This document shows positions 17,701 to 54,668 of a stretch of DNA of 64,000 nucleotides, piece after piece. Position 1 is the stretch's first letter, and each line of letters starts with the position of its first letter. The notes under the pieces were generated by a model. That model saw only the letters and a list, made by a program, of their open reading frames with translations, was not told the origin of the DNA and ran no database searches. Origin of the DNA: Metellina segmentata. Its lineage: Eukaryota > Arthropoda > Arachnida > Araneae > Tetragnathidae. The position numbers were made by a program, and so were the translations under genes. The stretch spans positions 124,755,409-124,819,408 of the forward strand of contig OX375879.1 of assembly GCA_947359465.1 (NCBI GenBank), in the 5' to 3' direction.

Positions 17701-19392
17701 AATGTGAAACTGGGTTCCAAATGTTTTTATCAAATGCATCATCAGATGTATTAGTTGTTTTAACTAATACCCTTTGAATCGAATGATTGTGTAAATGAAA
17801 TGTTATCGTTTTATAAGAAAATCACACCATTTCCTTTGATTTTGTAACATTATTTTTATGTGTCGTGTGGGAATACCTACTGTCTATATTTTCTATTTAT
17901 ATACAAAATTAGTTATTTTTCTTAATTTCGATAGAATTTTTAAATTTTATTGAAATATTTTATTTGCTTGGGGGAAAGGGCTTTATGTATATAAATGTAA
18001 AATATAATGTATATTTCCATGTATAGAATGAATAAACAGCCTTGTTTTATAAATTTGCTATTCTTTGATTTGGACATTGACAGACTGCACTGCGGAAAAC
18101 ATTTTTTAAAAGCTTTGCTACATGCTATTGTTTTAGAAAAGTGCAATGTGATGTACAGACACGGTAAAAAAACTGAACCATCTCTTTTATTTCAAGCACT
18201 ATTCATACTAGAGCAAATTCAAAGGTATCATTCAATAGGGAATAACACATCCTCTACAAATTCATATCTCCAAAAAAATGCATAAAGGACTAAAGTTTTG
18301 CGCAAATAACACAATTTCTAATGGAAACATCGTGTTTTGATGCCATAATCAGATTCTGCATCGTTAAATTAGTCTAACTATGAAATTTTATGACTCAATA
18401 CATCCCGTGATATTCAATGTTAGTTTCAATTTCAGGGATTATCTCCCCATAGAAAGACGCTGTTCGTAGATCGAGATTAATTGTAGTTATCGCTACCCGA
18501 ATTTCAAATTTCGACACTTTTTCAAATGTATTTTTCAGCAATCCAAAAATTATTATATTTATTACGTAAGTGCAAACAATTTGAGTGTTTCATTATTATA
18601 TAAACTATGCAAGTGCAAGATCCGATAACTATTATCCTAGGTTTGACAGGCGTTTTATAACCTTTTGGTTTCTTCGTACTATCGCAATAATTGGGAAAAT
18701 TGAATGTAGTGATCTTCGCACTAATGATCGGAAAGAGCTGGAATTTTGCATGGCCATACTAGAAGTCATGAATCGATTCCCCTGAAAGTATAATAAAATT
18801 GATATTCATAATTTTTTTTTATATTAATTTATAATAATTATTATTGCACACTAAAAACTGTTTTTAAAATAAATGCGAACTATATTTTCCAACAATCCAT
18901 CCCCTTATGAATCGCTGCTGTATTGATCCCTGTATGAAGGTTCATTCCCATTGCGATATTTATTGCATGTGCCTGAGTAACGGAAAATTGCCGACGTTTT
19001 TTGCTGGATAAGCGGATTCGTATATAAACCGACCCTAATGCTTTAGCTTTAGAAAACGTTCCAAAAATTCTCGGCTCATACACGGAAATATAATGTAAAT
19101 AAAAACAAAATGCTTTAAAAAAGTGTCAAGAACATGAAAAATGTCATCTCTTTCCATATAAAAAGGAAATATTTTAGCTCAACATATTGTTAAAATTCAG
19201 AGGAAATCTTATAATTTTAAATGTTTTAACGCTTCTGTGTTGTTTGTTGAAATGAAATGAAACTAGAGAAGTTCTTGAAAAATAATTTATGTCCTGGGCG
19301 GATATTGGCCCATTCAGTTTCAATGACGCAATGATTTAGGTAGAAATTTAAAGCTTCTTCCTTTAAGTATCGTGGAATTAGTTGATGCTAAT
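14748..19392. other. 3' UTR and intergenic region, no recognised gene
   Basis: After the ACBD5-like stop the sequence is AT-rich with possible poly(A) signals (for example AATAAA at about 15928), so the 3' UTR end cannot be set. Small frames (14787-15065 minus with an acidic D/E/S-rich start, 18007-18285 plus, 18585-18785 plus, 18880-19083 minus) have no domain I recognise. A small hairpin, CGTTAGG with CCTAACG, lies near 17302-17322. Confidence 0.45.
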
Positions 19393-19681
19393 TTGGTAAT
19401 TTTAGTTAACTTCGTACTAGAGCAACACAACGGGCTAATGACGACGGTCCGGGATCAGTCCCTTGAGGGAAAGATCCGAGGACAACACCTCTTAATTTTG
19501 AACCACGGTCAGATGACGAAGCAACACCTGAGCTGGCACCCCACTTTCCAAACTTCCACGCCAACCCAACGTGAGGACTTTCGGCCACGACAGATTTAAG
19601 GTGCACCAGCCGCCTCTACACCATACGCTTACAAACATCCATGCCCGTACCCGGATTCGAACCAGGAACCTTCCGACTGGA
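19393..19681 (-). mobile_element. SINE copy, antisense, 5' end incomplete
   Basis: Carries the SINE body from the 3' tail (AATTTTAGTTAAC at low coordinates) to the B box (GGATTCGAACCAGGAACCTT at about 19651), then stops before the A box. TGGAATTAG occurs at both edges (about 19374 and 19679) and may be a short target duplication. Confidence 0.8.
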
Positions 19682-20268: not shown

Positions 20269-20585
20269 CATAAGCCTGCAGTCGTGACGGAATAGCAAGA
20301 GCGGTAATAGGCAGCAACCGTATGAGGATGATCCATTGGAGGGGAGTATAATTCTGGTTCCACAAAATACGTAAAAATTCTATAGCAAAATCTTTATTCA
20401 ATAACGATTATAATTGGTGTGAAGGCTGTTGAGGGGCCGAAGCCCTGTACAGTTCTGGACTTTTGTATTGTAAGGGGCTCATGGTAAAAAGTGTATAGTT
20501 CAAAATGAATTCGCCAGAGGGATGAGAATTACAAAAAAGACTATTGGACAGGGAATCTAGCATGAAATTTCATTAGAAGAAGGTC

Positions 20586-20718
20586 GGGTAATGGTAATTT
20601 TAGTTAACGTCGTACTAGAGCAACACAACGGGCTATTGACGACGGTCCGGAATCAGTCCCTTAAGGGAAAGATTCGAGGACAACACCTCGTAATTTGGAA
20701 CCACGGTCAGGTGACGAA
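20586..20718 (-). mobile_element. 5'-truncated SINE, antisense, with 9-bp target duplication
   Basis: Flanked by AAGAAGGTC at 20577-20585 and 20719-20727. The 3' tail reads as an ATTACC repeat in SINE orientation, which marks the family tail. Confidence 0.85.
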
Positions 20719-26668: not shown

Positions 26669-27082
26669 CAGCCCCTGATTTACCATTAGGCCAGTGAGGC
26701 ACGGGCCTAGGGCCCCCATAATTTAGAGGGCCCCTAAGTTTCAAAAGTATCTAAAAAATTTAAAAAGTTTTAAGTAGTTACATAAATTATTGGGTATTTA
26801 CTTAAATGTCCGTCGACCGTTTCCCCCACTATCACATTCTTGTAATTACATTAATTATCTAGCTATTATATTTTTGATTTTCATCTGCTTTATTTTGTTT
26901 TGCCAAGAGTTATAAGTGATGTCACGATTTTCTCAAACTTTTTATCTGTGAAACGGTCAACAGTCAAATACGCAAGTACCAATTATTGTTATAAAATTAG
27001 TTTTTGTGATGAATAAATAACATGGGGGGGGGGCTTCCTGCGTGTTGTGCCTACTATACCAAATTTTCTAAATCGGGCCCTG
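26669..27082. mobile_element. hAT MITE with 8-bp target duplication
   Basis: A 414-bp insert starts CAGCCCCTGATTTA and ends with the complement of CAGGGCCCGATTTA, flanked by perfect 8-bp repeats GCTGTCCT at 26661-26668 and 27083-27090. CAG termini plus an 8-bp duplication identify hAT. No transposase is present. It inserted into the Gypsy leader, so it is younger than the Gypsy insertion or was carried by that element. Confidence 0.9.
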
Positions 27083-27108
27083 GCTGTCCTTCACGATTTG
27101 GCTTGGTG

Positions 27109-27775
27109 TCGATCTTCTCTACTCCACTTCACGGCTGGTTGTCGATTTTCTCTACTCCACTTCACGGCTGGTTGTCGATCCTTTTCTACTCCACTTCACG
27201 GCTGGTTGTCGATCCTTTTCTACTCCACTTCACGGCTGGTTGTCGATCCTTTTCTACTCCACTTCACGGCTGGTTGTCGATCCCTTTCTACTCCACTTCA
27301 CGGCTGGTTGTCGATCCCTTTCTACTCCACTGCACGGCTGGTTGTCGATCCCTTTCTACTCCACTTCACGGCTGGTTGTCGATCCCTTTCTACTCCACTT
27401 CACGGCTGGTTGTCGATCCCTTTCTACTCCACTGCACGGCTGGTTGTCGATCCCTTTCTACTCCACTTCACGGCTGGTTGTCGATCCCTTTCTACTCCAC
27501 TTCACGGCTGGTTGTCGATCCCTTTCTACTCCACTGCACGGCTGGTTGTCGATCCCTTTCTACTCCACTTCACGGCTGGTTGTCGATCCTTTTCTACTCC
27601 ACTTCACGGCTGGTTGTCGATCCCTTTCTACTCCACTTCACGGCTTGTTGTCGATCCTTTTCTACTCCACTTCACGGCTGGTTGTCGATCCTTTTCTATT
27701 CCACTTCACGGCTGGTTGTCGATCCCTTTCTACTCCACTTCACGGCTGGTTGTCGATCCTTTCCGCTGGCACCAA
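27109..27775. repeat. 34-bp minisatellite, about 19 units
   Basis: ACGGCTGGTTGTCGAT recurs at 27131, then 27164, 27198, 27232 and on at a strict 34-bp step to 27742. Units differ mainly at CCTTTTC versus CCCTTTC and CTTCACGG versus CTGCACGG. Because 34 is not a multiple of 3 and the unit lacks stops in any + frame, long open frames run in all three + frames; they are artefacts. The array lies just inside the 5' LTR of the Gypsy element. Confidence 0.95.
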
Positions 27776-27837
27776 TGGATTGTGACGTCTTAGGAATGGA
27801 AGCGTCATTCACTACGTAAGAATGTTCGCAGTGGTCT

Positions 27838-28758: not shown

Positions 28759-30210
28759 AGGGTGTTTCAGTGAACCGTTTCAGAACTTCTAAGAGGGGTA
28801 GGGTACATCCTGACAACTCGAAATCATATAGCAATGTGGGGTCGGAAATGCTTTCCTGAAGCGGTGTTGTACACAGAAACACCGTAAAGAAAAGAGACCA
28901 TAAGTGAGAAATCGTTTTAATAATACATGAAAAGAAGCAAAAGGTACATGGATTAAAGTAAGTGTTCGAAGTTTCTTCCACGGGCTACAATGCACGCCTC
29001 ATATCTCCGACGCATGGAGATCAGAACATTCTGGAATACTCCAGGCATATCTCGAATTTCTCTGGCAGCTACTGCAATTCTTGCAACCAGCTCCTCAACA
29101 TTGTCAACAGGGGTGTCATAAACTATCGATTTCAGATGACCCCAGAAATAAAAATCAAGACATGATAGGTCGGGTGACCGAGCAGGCCAACGCACGGGAC
29201 CACCACGTCCGATCCACTGCTGACCAAATGTGACATCCAGGTAGTTCCGAACATCTCCGCTATAATGGGCAGGGGCTCCATCGTGTTGGAACCACATTGT
29301 CTGTTGCGTCGATGCAGAAATCTGTTCATCTCTCAAAAGTTGTGGCAATACTTGCTGCAGAAAGAGCAAGTAGTTAGGTCCGGTTAGACGAGACGGTAAC
29401 AGGTAAGGTCTGATGAGGTGATCTCCCATAATACCGGCCCATACATTGACCGAAAATCGAATCTGTGCTGCACGACGTCGTATTGCATGCGGGTTCTCGT
29501 CCGCCCAGATATGGTCGTTATGCGTGTTGAAAATTCCTTCCCTTGTGAAGGATGCCTCATCGAAAACAACACTTCAGCAGGAAAAAGGGGATTTGTAGCA
29601 CATTTTCCAAGGTACCACTGTGCGAAAGCAATACGAGGTGCATAATCCTCCGGTTGCTGTGTCTGGACACGCTGCACGTGAAACGGATGCATGTCTTCTT
29701 CTCGGAGAATCCTCCAGACACTGTAATGGGAAACCCCGACTGCGTTTGCTACACTTCGTGTACTCGTTCTTGGATTCCCCTGTACATGCTGCAGCACATT
29801 CTGTTCGACGTCTTCAGTCCGTGCTGTTCTTACCCTGTCCCTGTCAGCTCTTTCTAATGAACCTGTCTCAGCTAACCTCTGGTGCAGTCTTGCAAAGAAA
29901 TTATGACTGGGGATACGCCTCGTCGGATATCGTTCCGCGTACAAACGCTGTGCGGCTGGTCCACTACAATTTGCAGCCCCGTACGCCAAATGCATATCGG
30001 CTAACTCTGCGATCGTGTAATCATCCATCCTACTAACTTGGCGTTCTTGTGCGAAATGAAGATTCCCTACACGAAAGCTCGGGATTTTCGCACAACGCCA
30101 TCTACCGCTTCAGGAAAGCATTTCTAACTGCCCATTGGTATATGATTTTGGTTCATCAGGATGTATCCTACCCCTCTTAGAAGTTCTGAAACGCTTCACT
30201 GAAACACCCT
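28759..30210 (-). mobile_element. Mariner-type element, DD41D spacing, inactive
   Basis: Imperfect terminal inverted repeats of about 50 bp start AGGGTGTTTCAGTGAA at each end. The transposase is on the minus strand in two frames. The right end is followed by TA; the left first base and TA are missing where it meets the Gypsy LTR. Confidence 0.85.
28953..30028 (-). pseudogene. Mariner-type transposase with one frameshift
   Basis: The N-terminal part (frame from 30028) has two helix-turn-helix-like blocks: AERYPTRRIPSHNFFARLHQ and, later, GNPRTSTRSVANAVGVSHYS. A one-base frame change near 29570 leads into the second frame, where V-V-F-D-E-A-S-F carries the first catalytic aspartate, FQHDGAPAHY the second and SPDLSCLDFYFWG the third acidic residue, an aspartate. 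I count 41 residues between the last two, giving DD41D, the spacing known for rosa-like mariners. The C-terminal frame runs 29429-28953 and ends normally. Length and motif order are close to complete, so a single indel appears to have killed it, besides possible substitutions. Confidence 0.82.
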
Positions 30211-32258: not shown

Positions 32259-33791
32259 ATGGAACAAGTAAAGAAACAAAGGACGATTCTTCGAAGACAA
32301 GCGACGAAAATTCTGGGCAACAAGGTAATGGTAATGGTAATGGTAATTTTAGTTAACGTCGTACTAGAGCAACACAACGGGCTATTGACGACGGTCCGGG
32401 ATCAGTCCCTTAAGGGAAAGATCCGAGGACAACACCTCGTAATTTTGAACCACGGTCAGATGACGAAGCAACACCTGAGCTGGCACCCCACTCTCCAAAC
32501 TTCCACGCCAACCCAACGTGAGGACTTTCGGCCACGAAGATTTAAGGTGCACCAGCCGCCTCTACACCATACGATTACAAACATCCATGCCCGAACCCGG
32601 ATTCGAACCAGGAACCTTCCTATCTAGAGGCTAACACCTTAACCACTATACCGGTTGGTCGGCTGAGGCAACAAGGAGATCGATGTAGACGATGTGCTAA
32701 AGCTGCGTGTTAGAAGAGAACAGTTACTCGATAAACAACACCGTCTATTAGAGCTAGACAAGGAGTACCTGCTACAGACGAATGACAGTGATGAACAGCT
32801 ATCAAAAGAAGAGGATTTGACCGAATACTATCAAGAGAAGCTTATCGAGGCCATTCAAGAAATTGAGCTACGTCTGATGGAAAAAGATTCGACAAAGGAA
32901 GGAGACAGCGCCGTTTCATCAGCCAACGAAAGGAGGAGGAAGCCAACTGCCCGATTACCAAAGATTGATTTACCTGTGTTCAACGGTGACATTAGTACGT
33001 GGAATTCCTTCATCCAGATTTTTGAAGCGAACATTAACCGACGTGATGATATTTCTACTATTGAGAAGATGTCCTATCTGGTTTCTCTCTTGCGGAAGGA
33101 ACCAGCAAGACTAGTGGCCAGTTTTGCTGTGACTGAGGAAAATTATGCAGACGTCCTCACCATATTGAAACAACACTACGGTAATACGTATAGGACCGTA
33201 GGACTTATAGTAAGAAAAATTTTGGACATGCATCCTCTACCACCCTCGCATAACAACAGGGACCTAAACTCGCTGATCACAGAAATTGCAATCCTGCTAC
33301 GCAATCTCGCAAATGTCGGAGTTTATGTGGACAGCTGTAGTCCAGTATTGACTACACACATAAAAACGTTAATCCCGTCGGACCTCCTGTTGTATGAGAG
33401 GCAAAGGATCCCGGAACACGAAGAAACCACTACAAGACTAATCCAGTTCCTGGAAAAAGAAATGAACCATCGGGAATGTCTACAGCCCCACACCACTCTG
33501 AATCCGAGAGCCCCGGAGTTCAAGTCCCGCAGCGGAACAACCTCACTTTGGAGACGACCGACCCCTGCCTTCCCACCAAGGGCTGGATTACAACAACCAT
33601 GGAGTTTGAGACCACAACAGTACCAGGGCTCATCACCCGGACCAAGGAGACCACCATATGTGGAACGTATACCTTGGAGACCTAGACTTATCCAAACCCA
33701 AGGAGTGCCAACCCCTCCACGAAATAGACCCACAGCGACCTGCTACAAGAGTGGCCTGCAGGGCCACTTTGCCCGAGACTGCAGAAAGTGA
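32259..33791 (+). pseudogene. BEL/Pao gag, interrupted by a SINE
   Basis: Gag starts at ATG 32259, runs about 22 codons, is cut by a SINE (32326-32666 with a 10-bp duplication) and resumes at 32677. The insert plus one duplication copy is 351 bp, so the frame on both sides is the same, but the SINE brings a stop. The main part (to 33791) has an N-terminal coiled coil, LPKIDLPVFNGDISTWNSFI, the DUF1759/Pao gag signature, and a C-terminal zinc knuckle CYKSGLQGHFARDC whose second Cys is Ser. It ends at TGA in the same frame as protease, so gag and pol are separated by that stop. Confidence 0.85.
32326..32666 (-). mobile_element. Full-length tRNA-derived SINE inside BEL gag
   Basis: Flanked by GGCAACAAGG at 32316-32325 and 32667-32676. 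It carries the B box (GGTTCGAATCC in SINE sense), the A-box region, the full body and an (ATTACC)n tail (32326-32345). It is one of the two best preserved copies. Confidence 0.92.
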
Positions 33792-33815: not shown

Positions 33816-34235
33816 ATGCACTGTACCGGAAACGTATTTCTTGTAACCGAGATGTGTTTTCCAGATACTGGACAAGACTTACTGGGACTCATTGACACTG
33901 GCAGCAATGTGACTATAGTAAGCGAAGCTTTTGTCAGGTCTTTAAAATATAGTGAAAAGTTGCAGGTGGTGCAGCAAACCAGTGGACGATTGAACGTAAC
34001 CAGAATTATAAAGGTGAGTGTCAAAATAGGAGAAATTAAGAAAAACGTCATTATGTATGTTATTGACTCTGATTTACCTTATTTGTTAATTTCCTTGCAA
34101 CATGCGGCACTATTTAATTTACATCTCGATATAAAGAATAGAAAAGTTTTTCAAAAGGGTAAAAATATCACTTATTGTAATAAGAAAAGTAAAGCGGAGT
34201 CAATGACTACATATCATTTGAAGGAAATTAATTAA
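33816..34235 (+). CDS. BEL/Pao aspartic protease region
   Basis: Same frame as gag beyond its stop. Contains the active-site block GLIDTGSNVTIVSEAF (D-T-G-S) and a later hydrophobic strand YVIDSDLPYLLISLQHAALF, matching retropepsins of the DUF1758 type. It ends at TAA 34233-34235; the following codons still read as linker up to 34264, where the Rep-bearing element is inserted. The stop may be natural decay. Confidence 0.8.
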   Translation: MHCTGNVFLVTEMCFPDTGQDLLGLIDTGSNVTIVSEAFVRSLKYSEKLQVVQQTSGRLNVTRIIKVSVKIGEIKKNVIMYVIDSDLPYLLISLQHAALFNLHLDIKNRKVFQKGKNITYCNKKSKAESMTTYHLKEIN

Positions 34236-34587
34236 CAAAATAAAAATTATGTAAAATTTAGTAAAAGTTATGGTATAGTGGTAGCAAACGGGACAGTCCT
34301 TTTTTCTCGCCAAAGTGGTAACCTTCCCTTTTGGTTGTTTTTATGGCAACCCTATTAAAAAGATTAGGATTAAAGACGCTATCTGATTGGAATTAAACCG
34401 TGTTTTGAAGTGAAATTAAACGTGCTCTGATTGGTTTAGATTTTTTTTTCTCGTTTAACGATAAGAGATAACGACGCTTAATCCGCCACTTTGTTTTTTA
34501 TCGTTTCACCGTGGTCTGTGTTTTATCATTCCTCGTGCATTTTTTTTCTTGTTTAACTACTCCGTCTTTTTTTTTTTTTTTTTAATC

Positions 34588-34627
34588 CCGTTGTGTTACT
34601 CTAGTACGACGTTAACTAAAAATTACC
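34588..34627 (+). mobile_element. SINE 3'-tail fragment
   Basis: Only the final 40 bp of the SINE (CCCGTTGTGTTACTCTAGTA to AAAAATTACC), right after a T-run. Explains this stretch but brings no gene. Confidence 0.75.
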
Positions 34628-34658
34628 AGTTAATTACCGTGTTTTTTTTGTGTAAAGG

Positions 34659-34982
34659 TTGGTGTTTACTTTTTTTCAAGTTGAGAATGAGCCGTTTGCG
34701 AACTCGGATTGCCATGAATATATTTGCTTCGGTAGGGAGATCTGTCCGAAGACTAAACGCGTCCATTGTCAGGGCTATATTTATTTTAAACAACGGCGTA
34801 GAATATCCGAGATCAAGAAGCTTGACAATGATTCGCATTTTGAGGCTGTTCGTGGATCACCAGCGGAATGTGCAGCATATTGCCGAAAGGATGGTATATT
34901 CAAGGAGTTTGGTACTCTTCCCGCAACTAATGTAGGCAGTAGCAAATTTGCAGATGTACTTGCTGCCGCTAAAACACGGTGA
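34659..34982 (+). pseudogene. CRESS-DNA-virus-like Rep endonuclease domain (HUH), remnant
   Basis: A 107-codon frame without an ATG at its start. Residues 2-6 (VFTFF) fit rolling-circle motif I; residues 36-40 (HCQGY) fit motif II, the H-x-Q metal site of circovirus, nanovirus and geminivirus Reps; residues 74-79 (YCRKDG) fit motif III with nicking tyrosine 74 and lysine 77. Intermotif spacing and the EICPKTKRVHCQGYIYF context agree with circo/nanovirus-type Reps. The frame ends at TGA 34980; related sequence continues for about 17 codons in another frame (from about 34979) to a further stop, then fades. The superfamily 3 helicase domain is absent. The endonuclease motifs are intact but no start codon is evident, so expression is doubtful. 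It may be an endogenised viral gene or a gene adopted by the inverted-repeat element. Confidence 0.78.
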
Positions 34983-35303
34983 CATTGAGACCGTTGAGAG
35001 AGATTATCCGGGCATCTTCCTCCGTTAAAATACGAATATTCTTTCGTGCATCGAATTTTCTAGCGATTTATAATGTGGCGACAAAATGAGGGTAAGTTTC
35101 ATTTTTCTATACCATTTCGCAAAAGATTACTATCAAATCCATAGAAATTGCTATCAAATCCATTTATGCAAAGGTTCACAGTGTGAATTTTGCTACATGG
35201 ACACCGCGCCATCTTGTTATGGCGATCTCCGCCATCTTGGTTTGGCGACCAAAACAAACGCCTTGGCGCTACAGTCCCGTTTGCGACCACTCCACCAAAG
35301 TTA

Positions 35304-35701
35304 TAATGATGTTACAGAAAGTGATAATTATGATATGATAGAAACGAGATATTTTTATAATAAGAAATATGGTAAACATTGTAATGAAAATATTAAGTTT
35401 TTTGATAATGTTTGTGTGTCAGAGAAAAGTGCTGGAGATGTTGAGCTTCTACAACAATTTCAGAAAGTGGGGATTACACCCCCCCTTGACTGAAAATTTT
35501 AAAAGTCATTTCGCTATGCAGGAAAATTTACCTGGATTTGCAGAAATTGTCCAAAAAACAGAACTGGCATCTCTGATACTAACTTTACGGCACATATTTT
35601 CAAAAAACAAATTTTATATTGGACGAATTCGAATGGAACTTAGGCAGCATAAAGTCTGTGATGAATGTTACATTTTTTTTTTAAATAATTTTTTTGTATG
35701 A
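35304..35701 (+). pseudogene. BEL/Pao protease-RT linker, truncated
   Basis: After the inserted element the BEL frame resumes (SYNDVTESDNYDM, then DVELLQQFQKVG) and resembles the linker before a Pao RT (E-L-L-x-x-F-W type). A frame change near 35460 is followed by 35369-35701 ending CDECY. No catalytic RT motif follows; pol was deleted. Confidence 0.55.
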
Positions 35702-38825: not shown

Positions 38826-38974
38826 AGTTTTAAAATTCTGAGTGCAATATTAATATAAATATGATAGATAATAAGAAACCCCCTGCAGAAAATTATATTG
38901 AAAATTCCCCGTCTTTTCGAGAAAGGGGAAATGAGTAAATTTTCTATTAATTAAATTTTAAGGCTCATATGTCG

Positions 38975-39292
38975 GTAGTTGGTAATTATTAGTTAATGTC
39001 CTATATGAGCAACACAACGGGCTATTTTCGGCGGTCCGGAATTTATCCCTTAAGGAAAAGATCCGAGGACAACACCTCGTAATTTTGAACCACGGTCAGA
39101 TGACGAAGCAACACCTGAGCTGGCACCCCACTCTCCAAACTTCCACACCAACCCAAGGTGAGGACGACAGATTTAAGGTGCACCAGCCGCCTCTACTCCG
39201 TACGCTTACAAACATCCATGCCCGACCCGGATTCGAACTAGGAACCTTCCGATCTAGAGGCTAACACCTTAACCACTATACGGTTGGTCGGC
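38975..39292 (-). mobile_element. Full-length SINE with 14-bp target duplication
   Basis: Flanked by GGCTCATATGTCGG (38961-38974) and GGCTCATATATCGG (39293-39306). One mismatch in the duplication suggests some age. It is inserted inside the hAT element. Confidence 0.9.
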
Positions 39293-53770: not shown

Positions 53771-54005
53771 GATCTGTTATCTCAGCACAAACAATTTCAT
53801 CCTTCTCATTTATCCAAATAAAGTTATTTATAATATAACTTTTATTTATATTTTATTATGAATAATTTTATTTCTCTTTTCTTATTATTTGTGTATGTCA
53901 CAAAAAAAGAAAAGAAAAAAAACATTTTGATTGTTATTAAAATACATCCATTTTTTTGAAGAGGGGTACTCAGCGTTACAAAAATTATAGAAGGGGTACA
54001 CTAGA
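53771..54005. other. 3' flank of the hAT pseudogene
   Basis: AT-rich. Segment 53883-53977 is duplicated at 54739-54833 inside a BEL LTR. Confidence 0.6.
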
Positions 54006-54546
54006 GTAGAGTGCCTATATAATAAGAATGGCGACAAGGGACCAAATTTGGCCCAATGCGCATGCGCGGCAGCCATTTTTCTACCAGAATCGTCGCAAAG
54101 ATGGTTGCTGGGCGAATTAATGTATCATTTCAAGGAGAACAAAAAGCATACGATTGTTATAAAATGGATACATTCGGTATAAATGAATCATATAAACGCT
54201 CAATTACATGCGTAATTGATGAGATGGATTGCACAACGCGCTAACTTAGATTGCGGGAAACACCATGTTGTTCAAAAAAAGCTATTTACTTAAAAAGTCT
54301 TCAAATTTATACCGACAAAATACTAAAATAATACTAAATAAACATTCTAGAACACGAAATGGAACATGAATAAGCTATATTTTCTTTTTAATTTAATATA
54401 CACACGTTTTTCTCGAACACCCAAAAAGTTCCCATGTTAAGTCTACGGGAGCTAAGAAAAGACCGCCTCGGGCGGTAGAAAACGTCTCTAAGCCAATCAG
54501 AAAGTGTTTCCTATATGTCGCCACTCTTATTATATAGGCACTCTAC
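54006..54546. mobile_element. Short TIR element, copy 1
   Basis: About 540 bp with inverted ends GTAGAGTGCCTATATAATAA at left and the matching complement at right, continuing through GTGGCGACA. The flanking repeat ACTAGA (up to TACACTAGA) occurs on both sides, so the duplication is 6-9 bp; the exact length is ambiguous because copy 2 starts immediately after. A 63-codon frame (54056-54244) has no recognised domain. Confidence 0.78.
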
Positions 54547-54550
54547 ACTA

Positions 54551-54668
54551 GAGTGCCTATATAATAAGAGTGGCGACAAGGGGCCAAATTTGGCCCACTG
54601 CGCATGCGTGGCAGCCATTTTTCTACCAGAATGGTCTAAAAGAAGGTTGCTGGGCGAATTAATATATC
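54551..54668. mobile_element. Short TIR element, copy 2, left part
   Basis: Starts GAGTGCCTATATAATAAGAG and follows copy 1 until GGCGAATTAAT, where BEL/Pao element 2 interrupts. It resumes at 60989. Confidence 0.82.

What the first reader, a model, noticed from the sequence alone, without database searches (positions are those of the whole stretch)
34271..35297. A CRESS-virus-type Rep gene inside a TIR element with target duplication
The Rep endonuclease motifs (VFTFF, HCQGY, YCRKDG) are seen directly. So are the inverted ends, the 6-bp AAGTTA direct repeats, and the clean rejoining of the BEL linker when the element is removed. HUH Reps normally act on circular or Helitron/Replitron-like DNA without terminal inverted repeats or target duplications. 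A Rep gene in a TIR unit that duplicates its target would be an unusual composite: a DDE-mobilised unit that captured a viral Rep, or a new element type. This is my strongest candidate for something undescribed.
Basis: partly seen in the sequence, partly recalled or inferred. Interest (0 to 1): 0.9.

Follow-up and report, generated by a model that had tools for sequence, protein, structure and literature searches.

The report
Merlin transposon carrying viral Rep fragment
This is a short, non-autonomous Merlin-type cut-and-paste DNA transposon, probably in a spider genome, that picked up a broken piece of a viral-type replication gene as a passenger; it is a neat case of gene capture, not a new kind of mobile element.

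Summary
The element is real: 1,025 bp (34272-35296), 26-bp inverted ends (22/26 matching) and an 8-bp target duplication, AAAGTTAT, not 6 bp. Its genome holds a large family: 1,711 first-look candidates; all 40 scored are 97-100% identical and near full length. Of 37 parsed copies, 33 have exact 8-bp duplications; mean pairwise divergence is 1.1%.

The likely mobiliser was found: an open 337-aa Merlin/IS1595 transposase (PF12762) between the same ends with an 8-bp duplication. The Rep element's outer parts are 89-90% identical to that Merlin's ends. Its transposase gene is replaced by a repeat tail and about 377 bp of a CRESS-type Rep gene.

One 2.4-kb element carries an open transposase frame and a stop-ridden Rep piece; two more places share the junction. 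The Rep piece lacks start codon, intact frame and helicase and shows no sign of constraint. Possible donors are Rep genes with long open frames, mostly clustered on one chromosome.

The parts
34264..34271 (.). left copy of the 8-bp target duplication, AAAGTTAT
   Evidence: 33 of 37 parsed copies have an exact 8-bp duplication
34272..34297 (+). left terminal inverted repeat (begins GG; mutated in this copy)
34272..34531 (+). 5' end of a Merlin transposon, upstream of its transposase frame (89% identical to L098; a looser alignment reaches 34551)
34587..34640 (+). 3' tail of a dispersed repeat, probably a retroposon, between the Merlin 5' end and the Rep piece; 7 other places in the window match it; imperfect flanking duplication CCGT[C/G]TTTTTTTT read by eye
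34654..35030 (+). captured fragment of a CRESS-type Rep gene (endonuclease domain and start of the linker; start codon and helicase missing)
34659..34982 (+). open frame with the three Rep endonuclease motifs; 33 of 37 parsed copies have the same 108-codon stop-to-stop length
35065..35296 (+). 3' end of the Merlin transposon; alignment resumes about 8 codons before the transposase stop (80-90% identical to L098)
35271..35296 (-). right terminal inverted repeat, GGTGGAGTGGTCGCAAACGGGAC... on the minus strand
   Evidence: exact 23-mer occurs 376 times in the genome, reversed control 0
35297..35304 (.). right copy of the 8-bp target duplication, AAAGTTAT
33816..34235 (+). protease-like frame of the BEL/Pao-like retrotransposon that was hit (Pfam scores just under the cut-offs); its stop lies upstream of the insertion

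Best explanation
The element is a non-autonomous member of the Merlin (IS1016/IS1595) superfamily of cut-and-paste DNA transposons. It is moved in trans by a Merlin DDE transposase that recognises the shared ends and makes an 8-bp staggered cut. An ancestral Merlin lost its transposase gene and received in its place a fragment of a CRESS-virus-type Rep gene. Likely donors are relatives of the long-frame Rep genes found in clusters in the same genome. The join probably arose by template switching at a short shared word (TTGGTGCTTT) during gap repair. Later a retroposon-like tail inserted at the Rep boundary, and that subfamily then spread recently. In a separate event a full Merlin regained transposase plus Rep interior in one 2.4-kb element. 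Shown: ends, duplications, copy family, partner with the same ends, junctions, donor-like genes, no sign of constraint on the Rep piece. Inferred: trans-mobilisation by this transposase, the template-switch mechanism, and the order of events.
For: 8-bp duplication and GG ends. High-copy young family: all 40 scored copies 97-100% identical to the window copy, mean pairwise divergence 1.10%, maximum 2.85%, over 37 parsed copies. Merlin transposases: all 150 scored of 1,051 candidates match PF12762, many with open frames over 300 aa; the same search rings in 1 of 14 control genomes. In L098 a 337-aa Merlin frame (PF12762, E 8.9e-16) lies between the same ends with an 8-bp duplication, and the Rep element matches it over its left 260 bp (89%) and right 200 bp (90.5%). 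In L099/L100 one element with duplication AAATATTT holds an open 337-aa transposase frame and the Rep piece; two further places match its junction over all 451 bases at 97-100%, each 35 bases after a 337-aa transposase match. Rep donor-like genes: 55-68% aa over the 103-residue matches, best DNA match 74%, significant match limited to 34654-35030. No constraint on the piece: variable sites by codon position 7/15/12 of 106 each; window versus composite piece dN 0.115, dS 0.14, and three in-frame stops in the composite. Merlin defining features from passages of PMC8101967.
Against: No transposition was observed. The 40 copies scored were the best matches to the window copy, so their youth and uniformity are biased upwards. 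One of 37 parsed copies has no duplication and one has 7 bp. L098 is 10-11% diverged from the Rep element's arms, so the transposase that drove the burst may be another. No Rep gene closer than 74% in DNA was found, so the true donor may be lost or unsampled. The microhomology could be chance in T-rich DNA. Of five Merlin loci fetched, only one has exactly these ends. Empty sites were not tested genome-wide.
Confidence: 0.93

Rival explanations
1. A new element type in which the Rep endonuclease itself drives movement of a TIR unit.
For: All three Rep motifs are readable in the window copy, and 33 of 37 parsed copies keep the 108-codon frame.
Against: The piece has no start codon, no helicase and a broken frame, and shows no constraint. 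The composite copy's Rep has three stops. A Merlin with the same ends lacks Rep. 8-bp duplications fit a DDE transposase.
Confidence: 0.01
2. Chance nesting: a viral fragment integrated into one Merlin copy with no functional link, and later copies simply inherited it.
For: This is compatible with most of what was seen. The Rep piece has its own junctions, and a repeat tail also nested at its boundary.
Against: A simple insertion would leave the transposase gene on both sides; here about 1,040 bp of Merlin (positions 277-1313 of L098's element) is replaced, which points to replacement during repair. An insertion followed by deletions is not excluded.
Confidence: 0.05
3. Exaptation: the dispersed Rep copies are kept because they feed small-RNA defence against related viruses or endogenous Reps.
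For: Hundreds of exact ends and over a thousand candidate copies of an element with a viral-type sequence, and related long-frame Reps in the same genome.
Against: No expression or small-RNA data were available, and a recent burst explains abundance by itself.
Confidence: 0.03

Closest known systems
Merlin superfamily (eukaryotic relatives of IS1016/IS1595)
   Same: Ends start GG, 8-bp duplication, 26-bp inverted ends, partner transposase with the DDE_Tnp_IS1595 domain (features from PMC8101967 passages).
   Different: The window copy codes for no transposase and carries a viral-type gene fragment. The 12 passages of PMC8101967 that I saw report no such cargo.
Pack-type gene-carrying TIR elements (Pack-MULE and similar; recalled, no paper read)
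   Same: A short non-autonomous TIR element with a fragment of an unrelated gene inside.
   Different: Merlin ends and a viral-type Rep cargo.
Geminivirus-like Rep transposon of Tuber melanosporum (Liu et al. 2011, PMC3198968; passages incl. part of the abstract seen)
   Same: Rep-like frame between terminal inverted repeats, two transposase frames in their reconstructed copy, many near-identical copies.
   Different: There the ends are 37 bp with no obvious target duplication and the Rep is geminivirus-like; here 26-bp GG ends, 8-bp duplications and a piece of the Viral_Rep (PF02407) type.
Endogenous circovirus-like elements of arthropods (Dennis et al. 2018, PMC6069186; passages seen)
   Same: Rep-like sequences in arachnid genomes, some in many copies (19 in Loxosceles reclusa, 19 in Varroa destructor, per its Table 1).
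   Different: 'transpos' does not occur in that paper's main text; here copies spread by a DNA transposon.

Membership tests
Merlin superfamily | Terminal inverted repeats starting 5'-GG | tested here: met
   21 of 21 printed copies start and end so; criterion from PMC8101967 passages
Merlin superfamily | 8- or 9-bp target site duplication | tested here: met
   Of 37 parsed copies 33 exact 8 bp, 2 with one mismatch, 1 (L024) with 7 bp, 1 (L027) with none; 3 of the 40 were not parsed by that script
Merlin superfamily | DDE_Tnp_IS1595 transposase encoded by an element with the same ends | tested here: met
   L098, PF12762 E 8.9e-16, same ends, 8-bp duplication; L099/L100. The window copy itself encodes none.
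Merlin superfamily | Intact DDE catalytic triad in the partner transposase | tested here: inconclusive
   Words around the triad (IDESKF, LSDCWKSY, NAIEGTW) are readable in L098 and L099; the assignment is recalled, not aligned
Merlin superfamily | Transposition activity | not testable with these tools
   only inferred from low divergence and duplications
CRESS-virus Rep (Viral_Rep PF02407) | HUH endonuclease domain with three motifs | tested here: met
   (E 3.9e-11)
CRESS-virus Rep (Viral_Rep PF02407) | C-terminal SF3 helicase and an intact gene | tested here: not met
   homology ends at 35030, frame broken, no start codon in frame
HUH transposons (Helitron, Replitron) | No terminal inverted repeats or target duplication, HUH protein as mobiliser (recalled) | tested here: not met
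   inverted ends and 8-bp duplication present; Rep broken

The most novel reading that the evidence does not exclude
The Merlin elements that carry transposase and Rep piece in one unit are the start of a viral-gene-bearing transposon lineage, and the hundreds of dispersed Rep pieces act in the host, for example as a small-RNA source that silences the related Rep genes or incoming CRESS viruses.
Probability: 0.04. Interest if true: 0.75.

Novelty: new variant of a known kind. Interest (0 to 1): 0.42.

Why it matters
It shows a route by which sequence of a single-stranded DNA virus type is multiplied in an animal genome: capture by a cut-and-paste transposon, rather than repeated infection or Rep-driven transposition. 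Counts of endogenous CRESS Reps in arthropod genomes may therefore overstate viral integrations. The composite copies, donor-like genes and visible junctions let the capture be traced step by step. One search for papers holding the words Merlin, circovirus, transposon and Rep together found none in the library held; that is not proof of absence in print.

Tried and rejected
Relatives by protein search: none in the protein database (1 candidate, none at E <= 0.001), none in viral contigs or prokaryote genome contigs; one weak inovirus match in the phage records (27.6% identity, E 0.01), not pursued beyond opening its record. A TIR 17-mer scan of viral contigs gave 5 stretches with one match each, judged chance by my own estimate and not followed. 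The viral nonanucleotide pattern has no match inside 34272-35296 and is at chance level in the window (12 seen, 11.63 expected). Structure prediction of the Rep piece from one sequence was poor (mean pLDDT 45.2), so no fold search was run. Two long pairs of TIR matches (3.8 and 12.1 kb) looked like autonomous elements but are the same Rep element with nested insertions (the middle of the 12.1-kb one was not read). A MULE fragment beside one Rep gene (L083) suggested a MULE mobiliser; in the 12 cluster stretches no match to the end with up to 5 mismatches was found, one with 6 in L087, so this was dropped. Of five Merlin loci fetched, L094 has related ends (18 of 23 bases), L097 has its own perfect GG ends with an 8-bp duplication, and in L095 and L096 the script found no ends. 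Other 8-bp superfamilies (hAT, P, MULE) were not searched for. Host guess Argiope bruennichi: size, N50 and 13 chromosomes fit (1.67 Gb, 124 Mb; PMC7788392 passages) but 173 contigs do not match the published scaffold number, so it is a lead only.

Full report
What is there. The finding is a 1,025-bp element at 34272-35296 inside a BEL/Pao-like retrotransposon (gag-like frame with DUF1759 at 32667-33791, E 1.4e-20; protease-like frame 33816-34235, best E 2e-5 but just under the Pfam cut-offs). The inverted ends agree at 22 of 26 positions. In a scan for such structures, 0 of 30 first-order simulated windows gave any hit, against 4 in the real window, of which this is the weakest. The Rep motifs are real: PF02407 E 3.9e-11. 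The nearest solved structures by sequence are two Rep domains, 6h8o (E 4.5e-7) and 2hwt (E 4.6e-7) (that they are from a nanovirus is recalled).

It is a family. The own genome (1.665 Gb, 173 contigs) gave 1,711 first-look candidates for the element; 40 were scored and all are near full length at 97-100% identity. I fetched the other 39 with about 100-bp flanks. With the window copy, 37 of 40 were parsed: 33 have an exact 8-bp duplication, 2 have one mismatch, 1 has 7 bp and 1 has none; the 3 not parsed by that script are L030, L039 and L050 (L030 has an exact 8-bp duplication). Duplications are A+T rich without a fixed word. Mean pairwise divergence is 1.10%, maximum 2.85%. These were the best matches to the window copy, so older copies are under-represented. 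The exact 23-bp end GGTGGAGTGGTCGCAAACGGGAC occurs 376 times in the genome (182 + 194), the reversed control 0 times; only the first 100 places were listed.

The mobiliser. GG ends and 8-9-bp duplications are Merlin features (TIRs of 24-462 bp with terminal GG, DDE_Tnp_IS1595; passages of PMC8101967). PF12762 gave 1,051 candidates in the genome; 150 were scored and all match, many with open frames above 300 aa; 1 of 14 control genomes also rings. I fetched five of these places. One, L098 (C13:73135100-73137300), has the same ends, an 8-bp duplication and an open 337-aa frame with PF12762 at E 8.9e-16. The Rep element matches L098 over its left end (34270-34531, 89%) and its right end (last 200 bp, 90.5%), and lacks L098's transposase between. 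L094 is a second Merlin family with related ends, 18 of 23 bases; L097 has its own perfect GG ends with an 8-bp duplication; in L095 and L096 the script found no ends. I did not search the genome for hAT, P or MULE transposases.

Where Rep may have come from. A helicase-domain search (PF00910) gave 25 matches from 82 scored; 19 lie in four clusters on contig C11, and 16 have open frames of 333-435 aa. That family alone is unspecific: it rings in all 14 control genomes, over the cut-off in 6. The Rep identity rests on the next step: 22 of the 25 loci match the window Rep piece by tblastn; L070, L076 and L078 do not. Full-length matches (about 103 residues) are 55-68% identical in protein; the best DNA match is 74%, and the significant DNA match runs only over 34654-35030: from four codons after a conserved ATG (reading MSRQ) into the linker, before the helicase. 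The 12 fetched stretches around these loci hold no match to the Merlin end with up to 5 mismatches, one with 6. The genes look constrained: median dN/dS 0.21 over 58 pairs with dS above 0.2, from 12 distinct 103-codon pieces at 17 places, all without stops; single pairs among those with dS above 0.1 range from 0.09 to 0.79. This could reflect selection on a virus before integration as well as in the host. The piece in the transposon shows no constraint: variable sites by codon position are 7, 15 and 12 of 106 each.

The joins. Between the Merlin 5' end and Rep lies the 3' tail of a dispersed repeat, matched at 7 other places in the window. In the composite copy L099 this tail is absent and the Merlin sequence runs straight into Rep at the word TTGGTG(C/T)TTT, which L098 and the Rep genes share. 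So the tail is probably a later insertion, and the capture itself looks like a microhomology join; both are inference. On the right side the Merlin sequence resumes about 8 codons before the transposase stop. About 1,040 bp of Merlin has been replaced, not merely interrupted.

Transposase and Rep in one unit. L099/L100 (C7:22711055-22713433) is one element with both ends, duplication AAATATTT on both sides, an open 337-aa Merlin frame (11 of 1,011 bases differ from L098; dN 0.007, dS 0.025) and, downstream, the Rep piece with three in-frame stops. A 451-base query across its junction (881 candidates, 40 scored) matched in full at three places: itself, C8:93376340 (100%) and C8:126390009 (97%). 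Each lies 35 bases after a 337-aa Merlin match, so 3 of the 4 listed places with a 337-aa frame carry the Rep junction; only the C7 one was read in full, and the ends of the two C8 places were not read. Another 20 places match the tail-less Rep form without a break at 79-90%, which I take as an older subfamily. The window Rep piece versus the composite's gives dN 0.115, dS 0.14, about neutral.

How it works. Most likely the 1-kb element is cut and pasted in trans by the Merlin transposase through the shared ends. The Rep piece is cargo. Ends, duplications, partner and junctions are shown; activity and the capture mechanism are inferred.

Novelty. Gene-carrying TIR elements are known (recalled), a Rep-bearing TIR element is known from a truffle (PMC3198968, passages), and Merlin is known. 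A Merlin that carries a CRESS-type Rep piece was not found in the papers I could search: no paper in the library holds Merlin, circovirus, transposon and Rep. Searches gave listings; I saw passages of PMC3198968, PMC6069186, PMC6186406, PMC7788392 and PMC8101967 and read no paper whole. I rate it a new variant of a known kind.

Results against the reading. The nearest Merlin is 10-11% diverged from the arms, so it may not be the source of the recent burst. No Rep gene closer than 74% in DNA was found. Empty sites were not tested genome-wide. One of 37 parsed copies has no duplication. Only one of five Merlin loci fetched has exactly these ends.

Noticed in passing
L079-L087, L089 (C11:11.68-11.70, 73.85-73.87, 75.75-75.76, 80.26-80.28 Mb; C2:24.93 Mb; C11:17.67 and 6.13 Mb): CRESS-type Rep genes with long open frames, several in tandem arrays (repeat units 99.2-99.9% alike in L079 and L083; 76-86% for most pairs in L084). 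Of 8 neighbouring frames scanned, 5 match no Pfam family, the others RNase H, MULE and 2OG-Fe(II) oxygenase. N-terminal Rep pieces show median dN/dS 0.21.
   Followed up: partly
L083:101-910: A MULE transposase fragment (PF10551, E 5.1e-8) sits beside a long-frame Rep gene inside a 4.26-kb tandem duplication.
   Followed up: partly
L094 (C3:131475900-131478100): A second Merlin family with a 348-aa frame and related ends GGTGGAGTGGTCGTTCACGGTAA; two other places with a 348-aa frame score identically (C2:122911288, C11:74569232).
   Followed up: no
window 7736, 19381-19434, 19959, 20229, 20579-20632, 32328-32381, 38968-39021: A dispersed repeat whose last 40-50 bases (CCCGTTGTGTTGCTCTAGTACGACGTTAACTAAAAATTACC) also lie inside the Rep element; probably a retroposon tail.
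   Followed up: partly
window 53999-54553: Another TIR-like element with near-perfect ends (25 of 26) TAGAGTGCCTATATAATAAGA and an 8-bp direct repeat CACTAGAG; not classified.
   Followed up: no
window 27013-27819: A minisatellite-like array that is open in three frames.
   Followed up: no
window 28953-30109, minus strand: Two overlapping frames that look like a mariner-type transposase (recalled, no family search).
   Followed up: no
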